Virus record (IMG/VR): IMGVR_UViG_3300044908_000045
Coordinates: 58,239 to 122,238 of that record
Source of the DNA: a virus
Reading direction: 5' to 3' (one strand)
DNA length: 64,000 bases
This document shows, piece after piece, positions 7,974-63,369 of this stretch; positions within the stretch are counted from its first letter, which is position 1; every line of letters begins with the position of its first letter. A program made the position numbers and the translations under genes. Under the pieces are notes generated by a model. It saw nothing but the letters and a program-made list of their open reading frames with translations, did no database searches and was not told the origin of the DNA.

Positions 7974-9647
7974 TTAGTTGAACCGACCCTCGATTCGACC
8001 CAGTCGCTTGTTGACCTCGACGAGAACCTCGACCAAGCGATTGACCTTGGTGTTGACCGAGGGGACCAGGGCGTCGGGCACATCGTCGCGCCCGACTGCG
8101 GCTTGGATAAATCCAGCGTTGCTCTGAATGTGTCGCGTCCGACCTGCGGTGTCGTTAACTAGGCGCTCGACCGCGTCGGGGTTTTTGAATCCGTCCGCTC
8201 CGTTGCCGTTATGCAGGATGGCTTGAAAGCTCTCAACGAACTTTTCGGCGTCGGATTTGTCACCGAGGTTCCGATTGAGCAGACCCAACTGGAATCCCAT
8301 GCTCTCGGCCGAGATAAACAGGTCGTGGTCGCTCAATTGGTCCGCGTCACGCCCGACCATCGACAGGGTGGCGCGCGACACGCACTCCCGGATCGAAGAT
8401 GGGATTTGCCCGGCAAGCGCTTCGCCGGCTTTGGGCAACGGCAAATCCTGCGGGATCAGGTCGCGGGCGTAGAACCGCAGTAGGCGCTCGACGGTTGGGG
8501 CGTCGGGGGCTTTGAGCGAGATGATCGCATCGAGACGGCCGGGGCGCAGCATCGCTTGGTGGATTTCGTCAACGTGATTAGTTGACAGCAGCACCATGAC
8601 CTCGTCGTCCTTGCCGACAACGCCGGAGATCGTGTTGATCAGATCGTTGGCGTCTTCGTCTCGCTCTTCGGTGATGCGGTCGATATCCTCGGCAAACACA
8701 ACGCACGGCATGTAGCGCCGCGCGAGGTGCAGCGCGGCGGTCAAACCCTGGACCTTGTCGAGCAAAATATAGGTCCACTCGCCATGCCGCTGTGCGACGT
8801 TGGCTACCATGCGCGCGGTCAAGGACTTGCCGGTGCCGAAGCGGCCTTCGAGCAGAACTTTGCGCCCAAGCGGGATTTTACGCTGGCGGCACGCCTCGGA
8901 TTTCAGCAATGGCACCAGCAGATTGACCGTGATCTGATCGGTCGTCACGTCATCGAACAAAACCGCCGCCTCGGTGGTGTCCTCGACGTTTAGGAAGTCG
9001 GGTCCCTCGGCCAGCATTAGTTGGCCGTTGTCATCGACTTGGATGCTGATCGCCTTGCCGCGATAGATTGATTCCTCGCGGACGATGCGGCGGGTTTCCT
9101 CGGCGATCCGCAGGATGATCTCGCGATCCTTCTTGGCCACCGTGCCCATGATGACCATACCGGGATGACCCTTGTTGTTGAAACTGAACCCGGTGGTGAT
9201 CTGCTTTTCGACGCCGGGCAACTTGAAGTTCCCCATCGCGACTTGGACGAACTCGCCTGGCCGATACCCAGTTTTGATCGTCAGCATCTGCGGGTCGGAA
9301 TACCAAGTGCTGACCGGCGACGACAGCCCGTAAAGGTTGCGGCACGCTTTGGTGAACGCCACCGCAGCGTCGTGCGGGAAAGCGTCGATCCACTCGAATA
9401 CCTTGAAATCCTGGTCTTCGTCCTTGATGATGCGGTCGAGGGTTTCGCGCGCGACCGTTAGCGGCATACGCGCCGGATCGGCTGGCAATTGGATGCGGCG
9501 ACCGCCATCGGGCCAGTCCACCGGAACGTCAATCTTGCTCCAATTGGGCTGCTTTTTGCCGGATAGCCGTTCGGCCAATTCCAGCATGACATCGGCCAGC
9601 GCGGCATTTTCCAGCACTGGGGTTTCGGCAACTACTAACTTAGCCAT
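7974..9647 (-). CDS. Phage AAA+ ATPase with large N-terminal domain
   Basis: 557 residues from the ATG at 9647, preceded by GAGAGGGG; a longer frame upstream is rejected as non-coding. The N-terminal about 250 residues are an unrecognised alpha/beta domain. The classical AAA core follows: Walker A EGRFGTGKSLTA (Lys near 274), Walker B CVVFAEDIDRI, sensor-1 VLLSTN, arginine finger MLRPGRLDA. It resembles FtsH/Cdc48-type hexameric remodellers rather than a replicative helicase. Phage AAA+ proteins of this kind often work with a VWA protein; a VWA-like gene lies at the right end of the window. Confidence 0.85.
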   Translation of the reverse strand: MAKLVVAETPVLENAALADVMLELAERLSGKKQPNWSKIDVPVDWPDGGRRIQLPADPARMPLTVARETLDRIIKDEDQDFKVFEWIDAFPHDAAVAFTKACRNLYGLSSPVSTWYSDPQMLTIKTGYRPGEFVQVAMGNFKLPGVEKQITTGFSFNNKGHPGMVIMGTVAKKDREIILRIAEETRRIVREESIYRGKAISIQVDDNGQLMLAEGPDFLNVEDTTEAAVLFDDVTTDQITVNLLVPLLKSEACRQRKIPLGRKVLLEGRFGTGKSLTARMVANVAQRHGEWTYILLDKVQGLTAALHLARRYMPCVVFAEDIDRITEERDEDANDLINTISGVVGKDDEVMVLLSTNHVDEIHQAMLRPGRLDAIISLKAPDAPTVERLLRFYARDLIPQDLPLPKAGEALAGQIPSSIRECVSRATLSMVGRDADQLSDHDLFISAESMGFQLGLLNRNLGDKSDAEKFVESFQAILHNGNGADGFKNPDAVERLVNDTAGRTRHIQSNAGFIQAAVGRDDVPDALVPSVNTKVNRLVEVLVEVNKRLGRIEGRFN

Positions 9648-9678
9648 GTCGTCCCCTCTCTTAGGTTGATAGTGAAAA

Positions 9679-10077
9679 TTATTCTTCGGCGTTGGGTGCG
9701 GGCTCGAAACGCGTCGAATCAACATGGAAGACGACGAAGTCGCCGTCCTTGTCCCACTGCCCGATTCGCATGTCCATGTGGTGCCGATAATACGGCGAAC
9801 CTGAGTCACCGTTCCTTCCCGCATTGTCAATGACTGCCTTGGGCAGGATTTCGACGACGATCGAGAGCCCGTTGTCTCCGGCATCGCGGTAGAGGCGGCA
9901 GGCGGGCTTTTGCCGCACGATCATGCCGACGGCGAACGTGTTGACGGTCTGCAGAGAGCGCAGCGCACAGCGGAGGTTCTCGATCTCGCCTTCCCGCGAG
10001 ATTTTCTGTCTCGCGGGCGGCTCATCGTCGTCAGCCTCGGCGCTGGCTCTCATCATTTGGATGAGTGGGTGGGTCAT
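9679..10077 (-). CDS. First gene of the leftward early operon, unknown function
   Basis: 132 residues. A helical, charged N-terminal half (KISREGEIENLRCALRSLQT) is followed by a beta-rich half (GMIVRQKPACRLYRDAGDNG). It lies 31 bases from the 10108 operator and directly upstream of the AAA+ gene, so it is probably the first gene expressed from the leftward promoter. No family recognised. Confidence 0.6.
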   Translation of the reverse strand: MTHPLIQMMRASAEADDDEPPARQKISREGEIENLRCALRSLQTVNTFAVGMIVRQKPACRLYRDAGDNGLSIVVEILPKAVIDNAGRNGDSGSPYYRHHMDMRIGQWDKDGDFVVFHVDSTRFEPAPNAEE

Positions 10078-14360: not shown

Positions 14361-14554
14361 CCGAGCATCTTGAATGGCGCGTTGTGATCCGCTACGGCGA
14401 CAGCGTTCCCGACGATCGCTCGGTCCCGATCCTGACGCCAAAGTGGATGCGCGGGACCGTGTTTGATGCGCGCTTTGACACAGAGACCGAGGCGCGGGAG
14501 TTTGCCAAGCAATACGGTGGGGTGGCTTATTTGAAAGATTGGTCTCTGGCGTGA
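14357..14554 (+). CDS. Small hypothetical protein
   Basis: 65 residues from the ATG at 14357 (ATGA overlap), MTEHLEWRVVIRYGDSVPDD onwards, ending in TETEAREFAKQYGGVAYL, a compact alpha/beta shape. It is translationally coupled to the methyltransferase through a GTGA overlap. Function unknown. Confidence 0.5.
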   Translation: MTEHLEWRVVIRYGDSVPDDRSVPILTPKWMRGTVFDARFDTETEAREFAKQYGGVAYLKDWSLA

Positions 14555-16485
14555 CAGTAAAAATCATCAATACCCATGTAATGGAGGGACTCCGCAGCCT
14601 GGCGGATGAGAGCACCCACTGCGTTGTATGTTCTCCACCATATTACGGGCTCCGCGATTACGGCATTGAGCCGCAGGTGTGGGAGGGCAATCCAAATTGC
14701 GAGCACGAATGGGGAGATGAGACGCGCCGCAAACAATCGCCGCAGCGGGATCACGCGCCTGACGGCTCATTCGGCGACACGAGGGGCACAGAACCATCTC
14801 GCGCCGGCATGACCTATGAGTCGAGCCAAGGCGCGTTCTGCCGCCTCTGCGGTGGTTGGCGAGGCTCATTGGGATTGGAGCCCAGCCTCAGTTTGTACCT
14901 GGACCACATGGTCGAGGTGTGCCGCGAGATCCGTCGCGTGCTGCGGAGCGATGGCACATTTTGGATGAATCTGGGTGACTCGTACTCTGCTCATGCTGGG
15001 CAGCGAAAAGAAACAGACAAGGCGGGTATCAAACAACAATCGAATGTGGCGTCTACAAGCGCACCCAGCCGCTGTGAGCCTACGCTAAAGCCGAAAGACC
15101 TGATGATGGTGCCGGCGCGGCTGGCTATTCGTCTACAAGAAGATGGGTGGGTTTTGCGATCCAATATCCGCTGGTGCAAAAAAGCGCCGATGCCTGAAAG
15201 CTGCGAGGATCGCCCGACGAGCGCTGTCGAGGACGTATTCTTATTCTCAAGGGCAGAATGGCGCGGGACTGAGAAGCCGCTCCCGCTACGCCGCGAGGAT
15301 GCTGCGTGGCTCGCAGCGCTCATTGATGGCGAGGGCACAATCTGCTTTCAGGAACGCGCCGATGCGACGGGCTGCGCGCCGTCTGTGAGCATCCGGCTTT
15401 CGGTCGTCAATACGCACCGCGGACTGCTGGAGCGCGTGCGCGAGATCGTGGGATACGGCGGTTCCGATACACCTTCGCCACGCTGGCGCAACGATGGCAG
15501 TTCGGGGCGACCAGTCTTTACTTGGCAGGTAGGAAACGCCAAGGCAGCGCGCGTGATTGCCGCTATCAGGCCGTATCTGATCGCCAAGGGTACGCAGGCT
15601 GATCTGGCGCTCAAATGCCACGAATTAAATCAAAAGCACCGGGGCCGCCGCGTACCGACAACGAGCGCAGCCGAGCTTGCATTCAAGCGGCGACTGTCTG
15701 CGGCGTGTTCAGCACTCAATCACGGCGAAGATGTTGATCTGTCGTGGTTCAAGCCAGCGAGGCTCGGCCGATGGGTTCCGCTTCCTTACAGCTACGACGC
15801 CGAGGCGGTCAAGGAGGACGGAGGTGAATTAGGCAATAGAAATGCGTTTCGTGGTTTTGGCGATTACACGACTCAAGGGGGCGGCGCGTTCGATAATAGC
15901 AAGCCCCGCAATGGAAATCAGATTGCAGGAAACGATGGCGTCCGATCGAAGCGCAACATGCGAAATTACATGTTGCTCGGGCCGTCGCCCTTCCCAGGTG
16001 CGCACTTCGCAACTTTTCATCCGGAGATTCCAACAATTGCGATTTTGTCTGGCACGTCAGAAAAAGGAGTTTGCCCGAAATGCGGCGCGCCATGGACACG
16101 GGTGATAACCAAGGAAGAATCTGATTGGCAGGGGCGCCTAGCAAAAGGTGCGCCAATGCGCTCTGGACTGGCCTCGGCAGCGGCATCCCCGACTTATGGG
16201 AACTTCAAAGACCGTTCTGCTGAAACCATCGGCTGGCGTGCGACATGCCGTTGCGACGCTGGTGAGCCGGTGCCAGCCACGGTATTGGACCCGTTCGCTG
16301 GGGCGTTCACTACGTGTCTGGTCTCAGAGCGGCTGCAGCGCAATTCGATTGGCATCGAATTAAATCCGACGTACTGCGAGATGGGCCGCAAACGGCTTGC
16401 CGAGGATGCGTCATTGTTCTTTGCCGAGACTCCAGCGGAGCCCAGAGGCGAGGATGAACCGCCAAGGCAGGCGATGTTACTGTAA
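14551..16485 (+). CDS. DNA methyltransferase (N4C/N6A type) with LAGLIDADG insertion
   Basis: 644 residues from a GTG at 14551. Motif IV SPPYYGLRDYG is at 28-38. A Cys/His region (NPNCEHEWG ... FCRLCGGWRG) and YLDHMVEVCREIRRVLRSDG follow, as in phage enzymes of this type. Motif I is near the end (LDPFAGAFTTCLV at about 578-590, SIGIELNPTYC), so the order is the beta class. Between VFLFSRAE (to 236) and YSYDAEAVKE (from 413) lies about 175 residues of foreign sequence containing WLAALIDGEG. The usual enzyme runs straight from VFLFSRA to YDAEAVKE. Activity with the insert is uncertain. It probably protects phage DNA from restriction. Confidence 0.88.
   Translation: MTVKIINTHVMEGLRSLADESTHCVVCSPPYYGLRDYGIEPQVWEGNPNCEHEWGDETRRKQSPQRDHAPDGSFGDTRGTEPSRAGMTYESSQGAFCRLCGGWRGSLGLEPSLSLYLDHMVEVCREIRRVLRSDGTFWMNLGDSYSAHAGQRKETDKAGIKQQSNVASTSAPSRCEPTLKPKDLMMVPARLAIRLQEDGWVLRSNIRWCKKAPMPESCEDRPTSAVEDVFLFSRAEWRGTEKPLPLRREDAAWLAALIDGEGTICFQERADATGCAPSVSIRLSVVNTHRGLLERVREIVGYGGSDTPSPRWRNDGSSGRPVFTWQVGNAKAARVIAAIRPYLIAKGTQADLALKCHELNQKHRGRRVPTTSAAELAFKRRLSAACSALNHGEDVDLSWFKPARLGRWVPLPYSYDAEAVKEDGGELGNRNAFRGFGDYTTQGGGAFDNSKPRNGNQIAGNDGVRSKRNMRNYMLLGPSPFPGAHFATFHPEIPTIAILSGTSEKGVCPKCGAPWTRVITKEESDWQGRLAKGAPMRSGLASAAASPTYGNFKDRSAETIGWRATCRCDAGEPVPATVLDPFAGAFTTCLVSERLQRNSIGIELNPTYCEMGRKRLAEDASLFFAETPAEPRGEDEPPRQAMLL
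15259..15783 (+). mobile_element. In-frame LAGLIDADG homing-endonuclease domain inside the methyltransferase
   Basis: About 175 codons lie between the two halves of a conserved methyltransferase segment. The insert has one LAGLIDADG motif (WLAALIDGEGTICF), then beta strands and helices typical of a single-motif LAGLIDADG protein (LSVVNTHRGLLERVREIVG, FTWQVGNAKAARVIAAIRPY, AFKRRLSAACSAL). No intein blocks are visible: no Cys/Ser at the start, no TxxH block B and no HN at the end. Boundaries are accurate only to a few codons. Confidence 0.75.
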
Positions 16486-42557: not shown

Positions 42558-42804
42558 GTTTGTCGTGGCTTGGCGATTCCCATGTGATGCCCGGCATCGG
42601 ACACTAGACCAAGCACTCGCCGCCGGTGCAATCGAACGCCAGCGCTGGCACGATCAGAACCCAGACCACAAACTCGGCGCATTGTGTGTTCAGCGCATCG
42701 GTGCCAATGATGAGTGGATCGTGTCGGCTTCCGTTCTTGGTACATCCGCACTAAATCTGGTGCGTGAAGAGCAAGGAACGACCTCTAGCGGGGAAGGGCA
42801 CTAG
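42544..42804 (+). CDS. Small hypothetical protein overlapping TerL start
   Basis: About 86 residues from a TTG at 42544, 9 bases after GGAGG (GTG at 42565 is an alternative). RTLDQALAAGAIERQRWHDQ and KLGALCVQRIGANDEWIVSA read naturally. Overlaps the GTG start of TerL by 41 bases. Function unknown. Confidence 0.5.
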   Translation: MSSDRFVVAWRFPCDARHRTLDQALAAGAIERQRWHDQNPDHKLGALCVQRIGANDEWIVSASVLGTSALNLVREEQGTTSSGEGH

Positions 42805-45061
42805 ACGCCAATCCCCCGTCCTGCGGCTAGGCGACGAGGCAATACCGCCCGAGTTACGCCATCTCCGCAATCACCCCGCCTTCGAACTCGCATACCGCTT
42901 CCCAAAGGAAGGACTAAAGCACTTCGAGCGACTGCGGTGTGAGCAGTCGCTATTGGCGTTTTTTGAGCGGGCGTGGCGAGAGATCGACCCGGCACCACTT
43001 AAGGTTAACTGGCACCATCAGTGCGTGTGTGCACACCTGGAGGCCGTAACTCGTGGCGAAATCCGCCGTCTCGTGGTGAACGTCCCGCCGCGCGCAACCA
43101 AAACGATCATAGTAAACGTATGCTGGCCAGCGTGGTGCTGGACACAACCAAAAATAGGTCCATTGTCGGGGCCGCAGACCAAGTTTATGTGTATTTCCTA
43201 TGGGCAAAGGCTCTCGACTGAAATTGCAACTCTTGCGCGGCGGCTGATCCTGTCCGATTGGTACCAAGGTCATTGGGGCGAGCGGGTTAAAATTCTCGAT
43301 GACCAAGGACGCATCGACAATTTCGGCACGACAGCGGGAGGGTTCCGTATCGCCACCTCGATGACCGGATCGACTCTTGGCCGAGGCGGCGATTGCGTTG
43401 TTGGCGATACTACAGTAATAGGCTATGCTGGACCGCAGCGCATAGATGAAACAAAGCTAGGCGATTATGTATTATCCTGCACGAAAGAAGGAATACCAGT
43501 CTACCGTCGAGTTATTGCTGTCGCTAGGCGCCCGCCGAGGGCCATCTGGCGGGTATGTACTCGATCTGGAAACGTGGTTGAGGCGACGGGAGAGCATATA
43601 TTCTACACTAGACGGGGTTCAGTCAGCGCAATGGCCCTTCGTCCTGGTGATGTTCTCTTGCGCGCACTGCGGCAAAATTTGCTGTATCCCGCACGCGGAG
43701 GAGCGTTCCAAGTCGAAGACGATATCGTTTCCGTGGTTGAGAAAACGGACAGAGAGGAACTCGTCTATGATATCCAAGTCGAAGAAACGGGCTGCTTTTT
43801 TGCAAATGGAATAAAAATCTCCAATTGTCGAATAATTGATGATCCCCAAAGCGTAGAAGATGCCAATAGTCAGGTAGAAACCGAAAATGTTACGCGGACC
43901 TATCGGGAATCGCTGCAAACCCGCGAGACCGACCCCTCGACCTCGGCTGAGGTGCTGATTATGCAGCGCCTCGGTCAGGATGACCTTTCAGGATACATCC
44001 TGCAAAAGGCTCGCGACGATGTTATTCACGTTTGCTTGCCAATGCGCCACATCCCCGAGGCGCACTGCACGACACCGTGGTACGACGATCCACGCACCGA
44101 ACGCGATGAATTGCTCTGGCCTGAGCAATTCCCCAAGGAAGTTGTTGACAACTATGAGTTTGAATTAGGGCCGTTTTCGTTCGCCGGTCAGTTTATGCAG
44201 CAGCCTGTCCCACGCGGGGGCGGGATTTTCAAAAACGAGTGGTTCGAAGCGTGGCCACCGCTTGACGAGATGGGCGAACCGCCGATCGGGGCGATCGTCA
44301 ATGGTCGGATCATCTACCCAGCGCTTGAGTATGTCGTAGCATGGCTCGACACCGCGCACACGATCAAAGAGGAGAACGACTTTTGCGCGATGCTGACTTT
44401 TGGCGTCTTCCGCGCCGAAGGGAAGGGGCGGATCGAACGCCAAACCGACGGTCAATATATCCGAGTGGCAGACGATCAGGGATATCCGAAGGTTCTGCTG
44501 CTGAATGCGTGGCTGAAACGGCTGACAATCCACGGACCCCCGGAAGAACTGCCGCCTGGGGTCGATCTTAAAACCTGGAATAGCCCTCAGTATCTGCTGG
44601 AGCGGCAGAAGAACTGGGGGCTCGTCGAGTGGGTCCATCACACTGCGAAAAGATACAAAGTTGACCATCTCGGCATCGAAACCCAGGCCGTAGGCCATCA
44701 GCTTGAGCAAGAACTGCACCGCCTGCACTCTGACGCAACGTGGAGCGTCGAACTCGTCCCGGCTCGGGGTGATAAGGTGGCGCGCGCCTACGCAGTGCAA
44801 GGGATTGTATCGTCAAGACAAGTATATCTCCCCACTTTTCCTGATGGAACCTACCCAAGCTGGGTAGATCCTTGCCTAGATCAGATTCTTATGTTCCCCA
44901 AGGGAAGATACGACGACGCAACTGACGCTTTTTGTGCTGCTCTAAAGCATCTCCGCGACATCGGCATCTTTGAACGGCGTGGCGAATACGAGATTGCCGA
45001 AGAGCAATCCAAGATTTGGATACCTGGACAGCAGCGACTCGAATTGCCCTACGATCTCTGA
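42764..45061 (+). CDS. terL: Terminase large subunit (TerL) containing a mini-intein
   Basis: 765 residues precursor from a GTG. The ATPase half has FFERAWREIDPAPLKVNWHH, the Walker-A-like VNVPPRATKTIIVNVCWPAW, SYGQRLSTEIATLARRL and the Walker B IIDDPQS. The nuclease half carries VAWLDTAHTIKEENDFCAML, LGIETQAVGHQLEQEL and a final DATDAFCAALKHL. A 144-residue intein separates GRGGD from CRIIDDP, directly before Walker B, so the ATPase cannot fold without splicing. After excision the protein is 621 residues. It packages DNA into the procapsid through the portal. Confidence 0.92.
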   Translation: MKSKERPLAGKGTRRQSPVLRLGDEAIPPELRHLRNHPAFELAYRFPKEGLKHFERLRCEQSLLAFFERAWREIDPAPLKVNWHHQCVCAHLEAVTRGEIRRLVVNVPPRATKTIIVNVCWPAWCWTQPKIGPLSGPQTKFMCISYGQRLSTEIATLARRLILSDWYQGHWGERVKILDDQGRIDNFGTTAGGFRIATSMTGSTLGRGGDCVVGDTTVIGYAGPQRIDETKLGDYVLSCTKEGIPVYRRVIAVARRPPRAIWRVCTRSGNVVEATGEHIFYTRRGSVSAMALRPGDVLLRALRQNLLYPARGGAFQVEDDIVSVVEKTDREELVYDIQVEETGCFFANGIKISNCRIIDDPQSVEDANSQVETENVTRTYRESLQTRETDPSTSAEVLIMQRLGQDDLSGYILQKARDDVIHVCLPMRHIPEAHCTTPWYDDPRTERDELLWPEQFPKEVVDNYEFELGPFSFAGQFMQQPVPRGGGIFKNEWFEAWPPLDEMGEPPIGAIVNGRIIYPALEYVVAWLDTAHTIKEENDFCAMLTFGVFRAEGKGRIERQTDGQYIRVADDQGYPKVLLLNAWLKRLTIHGPPEELPPGVDLKTWNSPQYLLERQKNWGLVEWVHHTAKRYKVDHLGIETQAVGHQLEQELHRLHSDATWSVELVPARGDKVARAYAVQGIVSSRQVYLPTFPDGTYPSWVDPCLDQILMFPKGRYDDATDAFCAALKHLRDIGIFERRGEYEIAEEQSKIWIPGQQRLELPYDL
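43394..43825 (+). mobile_element. Mini-intein in TerL
   Basis: Residues 211-354 of the precursor. Block A CVVGDTTVIGYAG begins with Cys1; block B GNVVEATGEHIFYT has the TxxH; block F/G EELVYDIQVEETGCFF then ANGIKISN ends in Asn, followed by Cys+1. The penultimate residue is Ser instead of His. No endonuclease domain is present. The DNA is visibly more A+T-rich than the flanking extein. Confidence 0.9.
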
Positions 45062-48276: not shown

Positions 48277-48319
48277 AGGGGCTTGCGCGCCGATACGTGG
48301 CGTATTATCTCTGCTGCGG

Positions 48320-48514
48320 ATGACTGCAGAAGAGTTCAGTGACATCGGCAAAAAACTGGTCGGCGCGCGTCCAGGATGGCAGCGCCGATTGGGGCTTAAG
48401 CTCGGCAAGGAACAGGCGACTATCAGCCGCTATGCGGCGGGAAGCTTGTCTATTCCTCATACTGTAGCGGTGGCGTTGGAAGCTCTGCTTGGTCGTATCC
48501 ATCATCCCAAATGA
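48320..48514 (+). CDS. Small HTH regulator
   Basis: 64 residues. WQRRLGLKLGKEQATISRYA then AGSLSIPHTVAVALEALLGR is an XRE/HTH-like segment with ATISRYAAG as recognition helix. TATTAT at 48301-48306 lies shortly upstream as a -10. It begins the envelope cassette region and could regulate it. Confidence 0.6.
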   Translation: MTAEEFSDIGKKLVGARPGWQRRLGLKLGKEQATISRYAAGSLSIPHTVAVALEALLGRIHHPK

Positions 48515-48527
48515 GGGGTACCACGCA

Positions 48528-49286
48528 ATGTCTCTCTTGCCGTTTGCCCGAAACTTTTTCACCGTTCAGGGCAACAATGCTGCGGCGGCGGTCACGAAGG
48601 CGCTCGTCAATCTGGACCCGGAAGGCGCTTCCGCTGCCGATCTCATGTCAATGGAGCAGGATCTCGACCGAGCGGGCGGCGTCATTGCTAAGCTCCGAAA
48701 GGATCTGGTCACCGAACAGCGCGAATTCGACGCGTTAAACAGACAGTACACCGAACTGATGGGAGCCGCTGAAATCCTTCAAAAAAAGCTGGAGGGCGGC
48801 GACGCCTCGGTCGAGGCATCCCTTGCATCGCTTGTCGGTAAAATTGAGAACATCGCGCCTGAGTTGGAGCGCGACCGCAAGGATGTTGACGCGACCCAAA
48901 AGCTGATCACAGAGGCTGAGAATGCCTATCAGCAAAAAGCGGCGGCGCTGACCGGAGCCAAGCGCAACCTCGATGCGGCCCGTCACGATCTGGCGCACGC
49001 CAATATCCAAGAGGAGCGCGCACGCGAACGCGCACAGCAAGCTGCTGTTGTGGCGGGTCTCACAAAATCTCCGACGAGTGGTCTGACGGTGGCGCTTAAC
49101 GTGATGCAACAGAGCGCAGATGACGCGCGGCAACGCGCCGAATCGGCGGACATGAAGGCCGCAGCCCTGCACCACGCGGGCAACGACGCCGCCGACGATC
49201 CGAACATCGCGGAGGCACTCGCCGAAGTGCACGGTGCGGCGTCGACCAAATCACTGAGTGAGCGGCTCGCAGCCCTAAAAAAATAG
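48528..49286 (+). CDS. PspA/IM30 (YjfJ-like) coiled-coil protein
   Basis: 252 residues from the ATG at 48528. After a short hydrophobic start it is almost all coiled coil (MEQDLDRAGGVIAKLRKDLV, KKLEGGDASVEASLASLVGK). Its end, ALAEVHGAASTKSLSERLAA, follows the DLDEKLAEAGI...VLARLQ end of YjfJ-like PspA proteins. PspA proteins coat the inner membrane and protect it under stress. The next genes are the partners of YjfJ in bacterial yjf operons (DUF1190 lipoprotein, membrane protein, ATP-grasp), which strengthens the call. Confidence 0.65.
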   Translation: MSLLPFARNFFTVQGNNAAAAVTKALVNLDPEGASAADLMSMEQDLDRAGGVIAKLRKDLVTEQREFDALNRQYTELMGAAEILQKKLEGGDASVEASLASLVGKIENIAPELERDRKDVDATQKLITEAENAYQQKAAALTGAKRNLDAARHDLAHANIQEERARERAQQAAVVAGLTKSPTSGLTVALNVMQQSADDARQRAESADMKAAALHHAGNDAADDPNIAEALAEVHGAASTKSLSERLAALKK

Positions 49287-49296
49287 GAGCAGGCAC

Positions 49297-49863
49297 ATGC
49301 GCGTTCGTAACGCCGCGTGCCTTGGCTCACTATTGTTGCTCGCCGCCTGCGGCCCTAACGGTTGCAGCGGCGATAACAGCCAAGAGCGCGTCTTCAACTC
49401 TCTCGCCGAGTGCCAAAAGGACCCAACTTACACTGCTCAACAATGCCTAGATGCCTTTGCTAGGGCATCTCAGGAACAAGCGGCGAGCGCCCCGCGCTAC
49501 TCTAATAGAGATAGCTGTGAGGAACTCTACGGACCAGGGAACTGTGTGCCGAGAGGTAGTGGAGATAGTTCATTCATACCGATGATGACTGGCTTCATGC
49601 TTGGCAACATGATGTCTGGTGGCGGTGGAACGACCTATATTTCGCGTCCTGTCTACATTGATCGCGGGGGCACTGCGTACACCACGGGTGGGCGTTCCAT
49701 CGGCACGGTGACGCCGGGTCGAGGCGGGTTTGGCGGCTCAGCCAGTTCGTGGAGCGGGTTCCATTCCTCATCCTCGTCGCCGGGCATCACATCGGGTGGC
49801 TCGGTCTCTCGCGGAGGTTTCGGAGGTTCGGCGTTCTCCGCCTCCTCGTCTGGAGGCGAATGA
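49297..49863 (+). CDS. DUF1190 (YgiB/YjfM-like) lipoprotein
   Basis: 188 residues. A lipoprotein signal (CLGSLLLLAAC, lipobox LAAC) is followed by the DUF1190 pattern: FNSLAECQKDPTYTAQQCLD, RYSNRDSCEELYGPGNCVP, IPMMTGFMLGNMMSGGGG and Gly/Ser-rich repeats with RGGFGGSA. The alignment to E. coli YgiB is visible along the whole protein. In bacteria ygiB sits beside ygiC, the ATP-grasp gene, exactly as here. Outer-membrane or periplasmic location. Confidence 0.85.
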   Translation: MRVRNAACLGSLLLLAACGPNGCSGDNSQERVFNSLAECQKDPTYTAQQCLDAFARASQEQAASAPRYSNRDSCEELYGPGNCVPRGSGDSSFIPMMTGFMLGNMMSGGGGTTYISRPVYIDRGGTAYTTGGRSIGTVTPGRGGFGGSASSWSGFHSSSSSPGITSGGSVSRGGFGGSAFSASSSGGE

Positions 49864-50042
49864 TGATCCGCATCTGTGTCGAGATCATCATTGCGATCAT
49901 CATCGCGTGGTTTGTGGCCCACTTCCTCTTCTGGGTTCTGTGGAAAGCCGCCACTCTCGCTGCCTTCATCGGCGTGTTATACGGCACGATTCGTGTATTT
50001 TCGCACTTCAGGGGATTACCAAAATGGAACGGATCACCATAG
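49860..50042 (+). CDS. Two-span membrane protein of the envelope cassette
   Basis: 60 residues (ATGA overlap with the lipoprotein gene). RICVEIIIAIIIAWFVAHFL and WKAATLAAFIGVLYGTI form two membrane helices. It takes the place of YjfL (DUF350) in the yjf operon but is shorter and not obviously homologous. Overlaps the ATP-grasp gene by 19 bases. Confidence 0.6.
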   Translation: MMIRICVEIIIAIIIAWFVAHFLFWVLWKAATLAAFIGVLYGTIRVFSHFRGLPKWNGSP

Positions 50043-51166
50043 ACCCGCGACCCAACTGGTCGAGCGAAATCGAGAAACTGGGGTTCGACTTCTACCTAAT
50101 GGACGGGATACCGTACTGGACCGAGAACGCCTATTACCATTTCACCGCAGCGGAAATTGACGAGATCGAAGCGGCGGCGAATAAGGTACATCGGCTCTGC
50201 ATCTACGCCGTCCAGCGCATCATTGACGAACGGCTGTTTCCGCTTCTCGGTATCGAGCCTGAGTTGGTGCCGTTGATCGCCGAGAGCTGGGACCGCAAAG
50301 ACCCAGCGATCTACGGCCGCTTTGACATGATGTACGACGGCAAGTCGCCACCAAAGCTCCTCGAATACAACGCCGACACACCCACCAGCCTATTTGAGGC
50401 ATCCATCGTGCAGTGGAACTGGCGCGAGCAACGCTTTCCCAAATCAGACCAGTTCAACTCAATCCATGAGCACATCGTCGCTCGGTGGCAGAATCTGCTG
50501 GTCGGTCGTCGAAATGCTGATCGGCTCTACGTCACTACCGCAACACCCATGCCCGAGGACGAGGCTACTGTTCAGTACATTGGTCGCACGGCTGAGGACG
50601 CCGGCTACAAGGTCAAATTCCTGCCCATCAAGGAGATCGGCTGGCACGATGGCCTAAACGCCTTCGTTGATCTCGACGGCACCGCCATGCGACAGATCTT
50701 CAAGCTATACCCGTGGGAGTGGCTGATGCGTGACGACTTCGGCGCTCACATTCGCGGGTCAGGCTCAGTCTGGCTAGAGCCGGCATGGAAGATGCTGCTC
50801 TCGAACAAAGGTCTGCTCCCGATCCTCTGGGACATGTTCCCTGAGCACGAGAACCTATTGCCTGCGTTCCGCGAACCCAGTCCCCTGCAAGGGAAGCCCA
50901 TGGTGCGTAAGCCGCTACTTGGGCGCGAAGGCAACAACATCGGCATCTACGACCCAGCGGGCCATGTGCTCGCCGAGACTGATGGTCGCTACGCCGAAGG
51001 CAACTTCGTCTATCAAGCCTATGCCGAGCCGCCAGAGTTCTCAGGATGTCGCGCTAATCTTGGTGTCTGGATGGTGCACGACGAGGCATGCGGCATGGGC
51101 GTCCGTGAGGACAATGGGTTGATCATCTCGAATAGTTCGAGGTTCGTCCCGCACACATTTGATTGA
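50024..51166 (+). CDS. Glutathionylspermidine synthase-like ATP-grasp ligase (YgiC/YjfC)
   Basis: 380 residues from the ATG at 50024, after AGGGGATTACC. MERITIDPRPNWSSEIEKLG, GIPYWTENAYYHFTAAEIDE, LLEYNADTPTSLFEASIVQW, LFKLYPWEW-like IFKLYPWEWLMRDDF, RKPLLGREGNNIGIYDPAGH and a final SRFVPHTF match YgiC/YjfC throughout. ATP-grasp enzymes join a carboxylate to an amine through an acyl phosphate. The amidase half of bifunctional Gsp is absent. The substrate of YgiC-type enzymes is not settled; a polyamine- or peptide-linked envelope modification is inferred. Confidence 0.9.
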   Translation: MERITIDPRPNWSSEIEKLGFDFYLMDGIPYWTENAYYHFTAAEIDEIEAAANKVHRLCIYAVQRIIDERLFPLLGIEPELVPLIAESWDRKDPAIYGRFDMMYDGKSPPKLLEYNADTPTSLFEASIVQWNWREQRFPKSDQFNSIHEHIVARWQNLLVGRRNADRLYVTTATPMPEDEATVQYIGRTAEDAGYKVKFLPIKEIGWHDGLNAFVDLDGTAMRQIFKLYPWEWLMRDDFGAHIRGSGSVWLEPAWKMLLSNKGLLPILWDMFPEHENLLPAFREPSPLQGKPMVRKPLLGREGNNIGIYDPAGHVLAETDGRYAEGNFVYQAYAEPPEFSGCRANLGVWMVHDEACGMGVREDNGLIISNSSRFVPHTFD

Positions 51167-51248
51167 TGCCCACCCCAGCGCGTCGGGATTTGGTATTGAG
51201 CTAATCGGTGTGCTAGACTGCGGCTCTCTGTCTATGGGAGCCGCCAGT

Positions 51249-62051: not shown

Positions 62052-62258
62052 ATGATCGGCTTGTTGATCCAAATTCTTATACTATGTCTTGTTTTAGGAT
62101 TAATTTTGTATATTTTTGGGGCGGTGCCAATCTTGGCACCGTTCCGCTGGCTCGCGCAGATCATCTGCGTCGTCATCGTGGTGATTTTCCTGATCGAGAT
62201 CCTGCTCGGCATCTCGGGAGGCGGGGTGAGCTTCCCCGCTTTCCATTCGATCAGATGA
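62052..62258 (+). CDS. Small membrane protein
   Basis: 68 residues. MIGLLIQILILCLVLGLILY and LAQIICVVIVVIFLIEILLG form two membrane helices around a short loop (GAVPILAPFRW). TAGGAGAGCC precedes the ATG. A role in lysis is conceivable but unproven. Converges with the PurA-like gene, overlapping by 8 bases. Confidence 0.6.
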   Translation: MIGLLIQILILCLVLGLILYIFGAVPILAPFRWLAQIICVVIVVIFLIEILLGISGGGVSFPAFHSIR

Positions 62259-63369
62259 CCGTTTCAGTTTGATCGCGGCGCGGGCCAAACCCGCGATAGC
62301 CGATCGCTAACCCAACATCGGGCATGGCGATCGTAACCTGATCGCAGCAGGTCAGGGCGAGATGTACAGACGATACTGAGCGACCACCAATCGCTAGGTC
62401 GTGGCTCACCCTTTCTTTGAGGCCACGCGGATCGAGATGACCAAAGCGCAAGGTGCCTTGGTAGGGATGACTTTGGTTGGTTGCGTCTATCGGGACCGGG
62501 TTCGGAACAAATTCGTTTTTGATCGCTCCAGCGCCGTGGCGCGTCAAATAGGTGCGCGAGACGTAAACAACGTCGAGTTCGAGGGCAAGTGCGCGGGCGA
62601 TCGGCACGACATTTTTGAGCCCCGTGTTCGATCGGGTCACATGCGGGAACTCGCCGTATTCCTGGTCTAGCAGCAACCCCTGTGCGCCCTCGAAGATGAT
62701 CTGCGAACTCTGGATGTATTCCAGCCCCGCTGAGGGTACGGCATGATCAAACTTCCGTGCGGCGGCGATGAACGCGTCAACCCAGTTGTTGCCGAGATGC
62801 GTGTCGTCTCCAACCAGTGGCGGGACGCCAAGTTGGTGCAGTCGCGCGGGCATCCAGTTGTCGCGGATGTTGATCAGTTTCTGCTTCAATAATTTATCAG
62901 AGGCTGACAGGTCGTCTTTTAACAGGCGAAACGCCGGATAGTTGTTGCGCTCAATGGTCTCGCCAAATCCGACCCCGCAACTGCCGTGTCGTGCGGCACC
63001 TCGGTGGTCTTCGACCATCTGGTTGATCAGCATATCGTAAGGCGTCGTCATGTAGCAGCGCGGGTCAGCCGCGACTGGGGGCGCTAGCCGAACCTCCAGA
63101 AACTCGGCGTATTCATGCCAAAACAAGATCGGATTGAGCACAAAGTGCTTGGCGAGGTAGGTCTTGGCCCCAGCGAGGGTGCCGGAGCCAAGATGGTGGA
63201 ACACACGTCGCCGATCATCGGGCGTGACGACGGTGTGCCCAGCTTGGGCTCCGCCATTAAAGCGCACGACAGCGCAATCGGCCGAGACGCCAGATGCGAG
63301 GTAATCAACCATCCGCCCTTTGGCCTCGTCGCCGTAGTTGGCCCCGATAACGGCTGTCGCGCGCCTCAT
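62251..63369 (-). CDS. Adenylosuccinate-synthetase-like enzyme (PurA/PurZ superfamily)
   Basis: 372 residues. NYGDEAKGRMVDY (residues 11-23) is the GDEGKGK P-loop-like motif, with the catalytic Asp at 14. GGAQAGHT carries the catalytic His45. GSCGVGFGETIER, IIFEGAQGLLLDQEYGEFPH and GTLRFGHLDPRGLKERVSHD align with PurA segments, and GPRRDQTETV is the conserved end. Cellular PurA adds aspartate to IMP using GTP. Phage PurZ enzymes use dGMP and start 2-aminoadenine synthesis, and typically have lost the Asp. Here it is kept, so the substrate is open. Shorter than cellular PurA (about 430). No DpoZ, DatZ or MazZ is in the window. Confidence 0.85.
   Translation of the reverse strand: MRRATAVIGANYGDEAKGRMVDYLASGVSADCAVVRFNGGAQAGHTVVTPDDRRRVFHHLGSGTLAGAKTYLAKHFVLNPILFWHEYAEFLEVRLAPPVAADPRCYMTTPYDMLINQMVEDHRGAARHGSCGVGFGETIERNNYPAFRLLKDDLSASDKLLKQKLINIRDNWMPARLHQLGVPPLVGDDTHLGNNWVDAFIAAARKFDHAVPSAGLEYIQSSQIIFEGAQGLLLDQEYGEFPHVTRSNTGLKNVVPIARALALELDVVYVSRTYLTRHGAGAIKNEFVPNPVPIDATNQSHPYQGTLRFGHLDPRGLKERVSHDLAIGGRSVSSVHLALTCCDQVTIAMPDVGLAIGYRGFGPRRDQTETVI

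What the first reader, a model, noticed from the sequence alone, without database searches (positions are those of the whole stretch)
48528..51166. Phage-borne envelope cassette resembling yjfJ-yjfM-yjfC
A PspA/IM30-like coiled coil, a DUF1190 lipoprotein, a small membrane protein and a YgiC/YjfC ATP-grasp ligase are encoded in a row between the portal and the other head genes. In bacteria this same group (PspA-like, DUF350, DUF1190, ATP-grasp) forms membrane-stress operons. The ATP-grasp and lipoprotein matches to E. coli YgiC and YgiB are visible over the whole length. A phage carrying the full set late in its structural operon suggests it protects or alters the host envelope during virion production, or blocks superinfection.
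Basis: partly seen in the sequence, partly recalled or inferred. Interest (0 to 1): 0.78.

Follow-up and report, generated by a model that had tools for sequence, protein, structure and literature searches.

The report
Swappable phage cassette for host envelope
A bacterial virus carries, between its head genes, a small set of membrane-stress genes related to an alphaproteobacterial operon, and its near-identical sister viruses carry a different membrane-protein set at exactly the same spot, which suggests that this virus lineage keeps a slot for protecting or altering the host's cell envelope.

Summary
The four genes are real. The DUF1190 lipoprotein (Pfam 4.8e-31) and the YjfC-type ATP-grasp ligase (4.4e-143, catalytic residues intact) are certain. 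The small protein is a 60-aa membrane protein, not DUF350. The coiled coil is not PspA/IM30 by Pfam; it belongs to an unnamed alphaproteobacterial family (20 of 385 genomes) that lies beside DUF350 in 13 of 19 loci and in clusters with DUF350, DUF1190 and ATP-grasp in 4. Its profile aligns collinearly with PspA above reversed and shuffled controls: remote kinship likely, not proven. The ligase is also closest to these operons, so the cassette derives from that operon type. In two sister phages with 99% identical portals the interval is replaced, with sharp borders, by about 3 kb encoding secreted and membrane proteins and a band-7/SPFH protein, a known partner or substitute of PspA. Lipoproteins paired with this ligase end in RGGFG plus a fixed small C-terminus, suggesting that this tail is the ligase's substrate. 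Phage DUF1190/ATP-grasp pairs are common, and another phage carries all six yjfIJKLMC genes. New variant of a known kind; function untested.

The parts
48287..51190 (+). Exchangeable cassette: interval replaced as a unit in sister phages; left border about 10 nt after the portal stop codon, right border just before the next conserved gene
   Evidence: blastn and junction alignment against L172 and L174 (both borders) and L173 (left border only)
48320..48514 (+). Possible 64-aa helix-turn-helix protein inside the cassette (weak)
   Evidence: HTH_3 E 0.037, below cut-off; lies inside the swapped interval
48528..49286 (+). Coiled-coil protein, 252 aa, unnamed alphaproteobacterial family, probable remote PspA relative
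   Evidence: Homologs in 20 of 385 genomes, operon context, hhalign with controls, helical model
49297..49863 (+). DUF1190 lipoprotein, 188 aa, ending RGGFGGSAFSASSSGGE
   Evidence: PF06693 4.8e-31; tail analysis
49860..50042 (+). 60-aa membrane protein, overlapping the DUF1190 stop codon and the ligase start
   Evidence: Sequence; no Pfam family above cut-off
50024..51166 (+). GSP_synth-type ATP-grasp ligase (YjfC/YgiC-like), 380 aa
   Evidence: PF03738 4.4e-143, phrog_6215 1.8e-125; PDB matches; residues

Best explanation
This is an accessory (moron-type) cassette in a dedicated slot between the portal and head genes, derived from an alphaproteobacterial DUF350-coil-DUF1190-ATP-grasp operon, that acts on the host envelope during late infection. 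Shown: gene content, operon kinship, and exchange for a band-7 cassette in sister phages. Inferred: the coil coats the inner face of the cytoplasmic membrane in a PspA-like way. Inferred: the ATP-grasp enzyme joins an amine such as spermidine to a peptide carboxylate. Inferred, weaker: its natural substrate is the C-terminal tail of the neighbouring DUF1190 lipoprotein before export. The net effect would be to hold membrane integrity and potential until programmed lysis; sister phages would get the same service from a band-7 scaffold.
For: Families and conserved catalytic positions. Coil homologs beside DUF350 in 13 of 19 loci and in DUF350-coil-DUF1190-ATP-grasp order in L245, L247, L248; L246 has the same four genes with DUF1190 after the ligase. 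The closest coil and the closest ligase come from the same locus, L245 (43% and 53%), and the ligase tree groups the window with these operons, SH-aLRT 94. Coil-to-PspA profile score 41-51 against about 19 reversed and at most 31 block-shuffled. Cassette swap in sister phages for genes including a Band_7 protein (5.2e-14), with sharp borders. In B. subtilis an SPFH protein is needed to bring PspA to the membrane (PMC8581546), and band-7 replaces the PspA dyad in some ATP-grasp/DUF350/DUF1190 operons (PMC11237479). Tails: last residue G/S/A/E in 106 of 107 (null 78.5, sd 4.5), Glu at -1 in 13 (null 1.3).
Against: No expression or biochemical data. Coil-PspA kinship fails single-sequence tests and solved-structure comparison, and coiled coils inflate profile scores. 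DUF1190 of phage GAP31, with no ligase among its near neighbours, also ends in GG, so the tail may have another role. DUF350, the usual membrane partner, is missing. The sister cassettes are not shown to do the same job.
Confidence: 0.5

Rival explanations
1. Polyamine control: the ligase ties up host spermidine or homospermidine as a peptide conjugate to tune DNA packaging, translation or base modification; the other genes are passengers.
For: Phages encode polyamine enzymes; Motura has homospermidine synthase two genes upstream of its ligase (PMC9992855). A related gene is in phiW-14, whose DNA carries putrescinyl-thymine (PMC5977210).
Against: No polyamine synthesis gene was seen in this cassette; a lipoprotein, a membrane protein and a coil are; the sister slot has a band-7 protein and no ligase.
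Confidence: 0.2
2. Superinfection exclusion: the lipoprotein and membrane protein, made late, change the envelope so that other phages cannot adsorb or inject.
For: Lipoproteins and small membrane proteins are typical exclusion factors (general knowledge); variation of the slot between near-identical phages fits conflict-driven diversity. A pspA gain-of-function mutation blocks phage adsorption in Klebsiella (PMC12234005).
Against: DUF1190-ligase operons are common in bacteria without phage context; a ligase and a coil are not needed for simple exclusion.
Confidence: 0.2
3. The coil is a virion structural or assembly protein by chance next to a metabolic pair.
For: Location between portal and head genes; weak PHROG tail tape-measure hit 0.0081.
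Against: It is swapped out as part of the cassette in sister phages and its homologs sit in bacterial DUF350/DUF1190/ATP-grasp operons.
Confidence: 0.05

Closest known systems
E. coli yjfIJKLMC and ygiBC operons
   Same: DUF1190 lipoprotein followed by an ATP-grasp ligase (yjfMC, ygiBC); a coil gene upstream stands where yjfJ (PspA) belongs
   Different: No DUF2170, DUF2491 or DUF350; the coil is not YjfJ by sequence; a 60-aa membrane protein sits between lipoprotein and ligase
Alphaproteobacterial DUF350-coil-DUF1190-ATP-grasp operon (L245, L247, L248)
   Same: Same coil family (43% in L245), DUF1190 and ligase (53% in L245) in the same order
   Different: The phage lacks DUF350 and has a small membrane gene instead
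Phage GSP_synth/DUF1190 pairs (phrog_6215, phrog_3739), e.g. Ochrobactrum phage OC, Sinorhizobium phage Phosso, Motura
   Same: Ligase near a DUF1190-type lipoprotein in a phage
   Different: No coil of this family found in any other phage; not in a portal/head slot in the records read
B. subtilis ydjFGHI (PspA with SPFH protein YdjI)
   Same: PspA and SPFH proteins serve one membrane-protection system (PMC8581546)
   Different: There they act together; here the two kinds alternate between sister phages

Membership tests
PspA/IM30 | Match to PF04012 above its cut-off | tested here: not met
   No hit for the window protein or for five homologs
PspA/IM30 | Collinear profile-profile similarity over the whole length | tested here: inconclusive
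   hhalign probability 77-92%, E 2e-5 to 6e-7, above controls; coiled-coil bias possible
PspA/IM30 | ESCRT-III-like fold and membrane-bound polymers | tested here: inconclusive
   Single-sequence model is a long helical hairpin with further helices, pLDDT 76; PDB Foldseek shows no PspA in the 50 best; BFVD rank 2 is a phage PspA/IM30 protein, E 1.6e-3; polymers not testable
DUF1190 (PF06693) | Match above its cut-off | tested here: met
   108.7 bits against 22
GSP_synth / YgiC-YjfC ligases | Match to PF03738 with conserved ATP/Mg positions | tested here: met
   477 bits; R99, D101, E114, N116, K262, K296 conserved with Gss
GSP_synth / YgiC-YjfC ligases | Peptide-spermidine ligase activity | not testable with these tools
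   Reported for YgiC and YjfC (Pederick 2023, as cited in PMC12568646); not for this protein
yjfIJKLMC-type operon | DUF1190 and ATP-grasp genes together in one run | tested here: met
   49297-51166
yjfIJKLMC-type operon | DUF350 membrane protein present | tested here: not met
   The small ORF has no DUF350 match
Phage moron | Inserted or exchanged as a unit relative to close relatives | tested here: met
   Sharp-bordered swap in L172 and L174; no corresponding insert in L178 and L180
Phage moron | Own promoter and terminator | tested here: inconclusive
   No sigma-70-like promoter by scan; terminator-like matches only

The most novel reading that the evidence does not exclude
Two parts. (1) This phage lineage has a fixed slot in which whole envelope-maintenance modules (PspA-like coil + DUF1190 + ligase, or a band-7 scaffold with membrane proteins) are exchanged as functional equivalents. 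(2) The ATP-grasp ligase conjugates a polyamine to the C-terminus of its own DUF1190 lipoprotein, whose RGGFG-x(n)-G-[GSEA] tail is the recognition and acceptor site, in bacteria and phages alike: a genetically encoded protein-polyamine tag.
Probability: 0.3. Interest if true: 0.85.

Novelty: new variant of a known kind. Interest (0 to 1): 0.6.

Why it matters
Near-identical phages show by themselves that a coil/DUF1190/ATP-grasp set and a band-7 set can fill the same place. The work links an unnamed coiled-coil family to the widespread but unexplained DUF350/DUF1190/ATP-grasp operons. It also offers a testable substrate for YgiC/YjfC-type ligases, whose natural peptide is, to my knowledge, unknown.

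Tried and rejected
Direct placement of the coil in PspA by Pfam, NCBIfam, BLASTP against YjfJ, PDB sequence search and PDB Foldseek failed. No phage or viral relative of the coil by tblastn or pattern scans; one alignment was too divergent for the scan. The window ligase alone finds nothing in viral contigs. My iterative DUF1190 profile drifts to short Gly/Ser-rich lipoproteins: only 31 of its 75 viral hits near the ligase match Pfam DUF1190 at E 0.01, so neighbour counts are upper bounds. A first attempt at an unbiased tail test mis-set the gene starts and was redone. A sigma-70 promoter scan at the junction gave nothing. Phage ME3 has a PspA-like gene (ME3_238) without these partners beside it. 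The main amidoligase paper and the YgiC/YjfC paper are not in the library, so I cannot exclude that the tail idea has been published.

Full report
What is there. The window is part of a 122,238-bp IMG/VR virus record (window = 58239-122238). Between a portal gene and the head genes lie four packed ORFs: a coiled coil (48528-49286), a DUF1190 lipoprotein (49297-49863), a 60-aa membrane protein (49860-50042) and a GSP_synth ATP-grasp ligase (50024-51166). The last three overlap. A possible 64-aa HTH ORF precedes them (HTH_3 E 0.037).

The ligase. It matches PF03738 at 4.4e-143 and the solved YjfC and YgiC at 1e-93 and 2e-90. Positions aligned to Gss R316, D318, E330, N332, K498, K533, R538 and R598 are conserved (the roles of these residues are from my knowledge of Gss). 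Homologs are common in phages: 137 records in the phage collection, a few of which are bacterial, and 92 confirmed stretches in IMG/VR. On the tree, phage and bacterial copies are mixed (11 changes by parsimony, at least 4 forced by starred branches). The window's ligase groups with alphaproteobacterial operon copies (SH-aLRT 94), not with other phage copies; one row in that group (L246) has a long branch and its place is unsure.

The coiled coil. Single-sequence searches do not place it in PspA/IM30. A search of 385 genomes of one class (that of a Bradyrhizobium genome) found matches in 20, mostly full length and 32-44% identical. DUF350 is adjacent in 13 of 19 loci. In L245, L247 and L248 the order is DUF350-coil-DUF1190-ATP-grasp; L246 has the same four genes with DUF1190 after the ligase. 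The family has no name in Pfam or NCBIfam. Compared by hhalign with a PspA profile of 23 members it aligns collinearly over about 200 columns (score 41 or 51 by direction, E 2e-5 or 6e-7 for a single comparison); reversed profiles score about 19 and 20 block-shuffled profiles at most 31. A profile of the family finds no PspA structure by sequence in the PDB. The viral Foldseek search ranks a phage PspA/IM30 protein second, at E 1.6e-3. I read it as a probable, unproven remote PspA relative; the operon membership does not depend on that.

The slot. Four IMG/VR contigs carry a portal 99-100% identical to the window's; one of them, L175, ends inside the portal. In L172 and L174 the window interval 48287-51190 is replaced by about 3.06 kb of other genes, while most flanking blocks are 84-97% identical; both borders are sharp. 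The fragment L173 shows the same left border and the start of a related, shorter cassette. These cassettes encode small secreted and membrane proteins and a 460-aa Band_7/SPFH protein (5.2e-14). The window's record has no such band-7 gene and the sister records have no GSP_synth gene; records may be incomplete. More distant relatives (L178, L180) have no corresponding insert. In B. subtilis an SPFH protein is required to bring PspA to the membrane (PMC8581546), and in ATP-grasp/DUF350/DUF1190 operons a band-7 protein can replace the PspA dyad (PMC11237479). So the slot seems to hold alternative envelope modules; functional equivalence is inference.

The C-terminal tail. DUF1190-type lipoproteins within 1.5 kb of the ligase end in a position-fixed way: an RGGFG-like motif mostly 12-18 residues from the end, Gly at -2 in 81 of 107 non-redundant proteins, last residue G/S/A/E in 106 of 107 (expected 78.5, sd 4.5, by drawing from their own last 13 residues), and Glu at -1 in 13 (expected 1.3). 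Lipoproteins missed by the profile, such as those of Bradyrhizobium (L109, L110, L128), end the same way. The window protein ends SSSGGE. Since Gss acts on the C-terminal Gly of glutathione (my knowledge) and YgiC/YjfC are reported as peptide-spermidine ligases (Pederick 2023, cited in PMC12568646), I propose that this tail is the ligase's substrate. Against: most of the proteins were found with a profile that includes the tail; they are Gly/Ser-rich; DUF1190 in phage GAP31, with no ligase among its near neighbours, also ends in GG; the lipoprotein is exported while the ligase is predicted to be cytosolic.

Known and new. Phage ligase genes and their link to polyamines are published (PMC9992855, PMC5977210, PMC5587285), as is the bacterial operon (PMC11237479). 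I found no report of the coil family, of the cassette exchange, or of the tail, in an incomplete library. A Pfam-verified DUF1190 lies near the ligase in 31 of 80 viral loci, and DUF350 within 2.5 kb in 30 of 80; some of these loci are near copies. A phage contig with terminase, head protease, DnaB-like helicase and UvsX-like genes carries all six yjfIJKLMC genes in order (L089).

Mechanism, with the status of each step. Shown: the genes, their kinship, the exchange. Inferred from family: membrane coating by the coil, amide ligation by the ATP-grasp enzyme, export of the lipoprotein. Proposed: the lipoprotein tail as the ligase's substrate; support of the host membrane until lysis. Superinfection exclusion and polyamine control remain open.

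Verdict. Observation partly confirmed; interpretation partly supported; a new variant of a known kind with two testable new points, the slot exchange and the tail.

Noticed in passing
window 43409-43771 (inside terminase large subunit 42764-45061): Intein-like insert (Intein_splicing 3.9e-6, below the curated cut-off; Hint 3.1e-4) in the terminase; the sister phages L172 and L174 lack it.
   Followed up: partly
window 14539-16485 (+): DNA methyltransferase ORF (N6_N4_Mtase 5.2e-26, two stretches) interrupted by an HNH-endonuclease-like stretch (residues 253-369), possibly another intein.
   Followed up: no
window 62251-63369 (-): Adenylosuccinate synthetase homolog (PF00709 1.8e-40; PurZ model 5.7e-11, below cut-off): ordinary purine role or 2-aminoadenine synthesis undecided.
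   Followed up: partly
L089 3182-7149 (IMG/VR 3300020473_000020): Complete yjfI-J-K-L-M-C gene order, each with its Pfam family, on a phage contig.
   Followed up: partly
L009 1540-11845 (left end of the virus record): Array of 23 tRNA genes.
   Followed up: no
window 7974-9884 (-): AAA ATPase (phrog_10440 1.1e-80) with weak similarity to FtsH/PAN ATPases and to anti-phage ATPase IteA.
   Followed up: no
L172 6621-9658, L174 12379-15417: Alternative slot cassette: secreted 126-aa and 85-aa proteins, 172-aa and 95-aa membrane proteins and a 460-aa band-7 protein; related SPFH proteins occur in Brevundimonas, Xanthomonas and Vibrio phages.
   Followed up: partly
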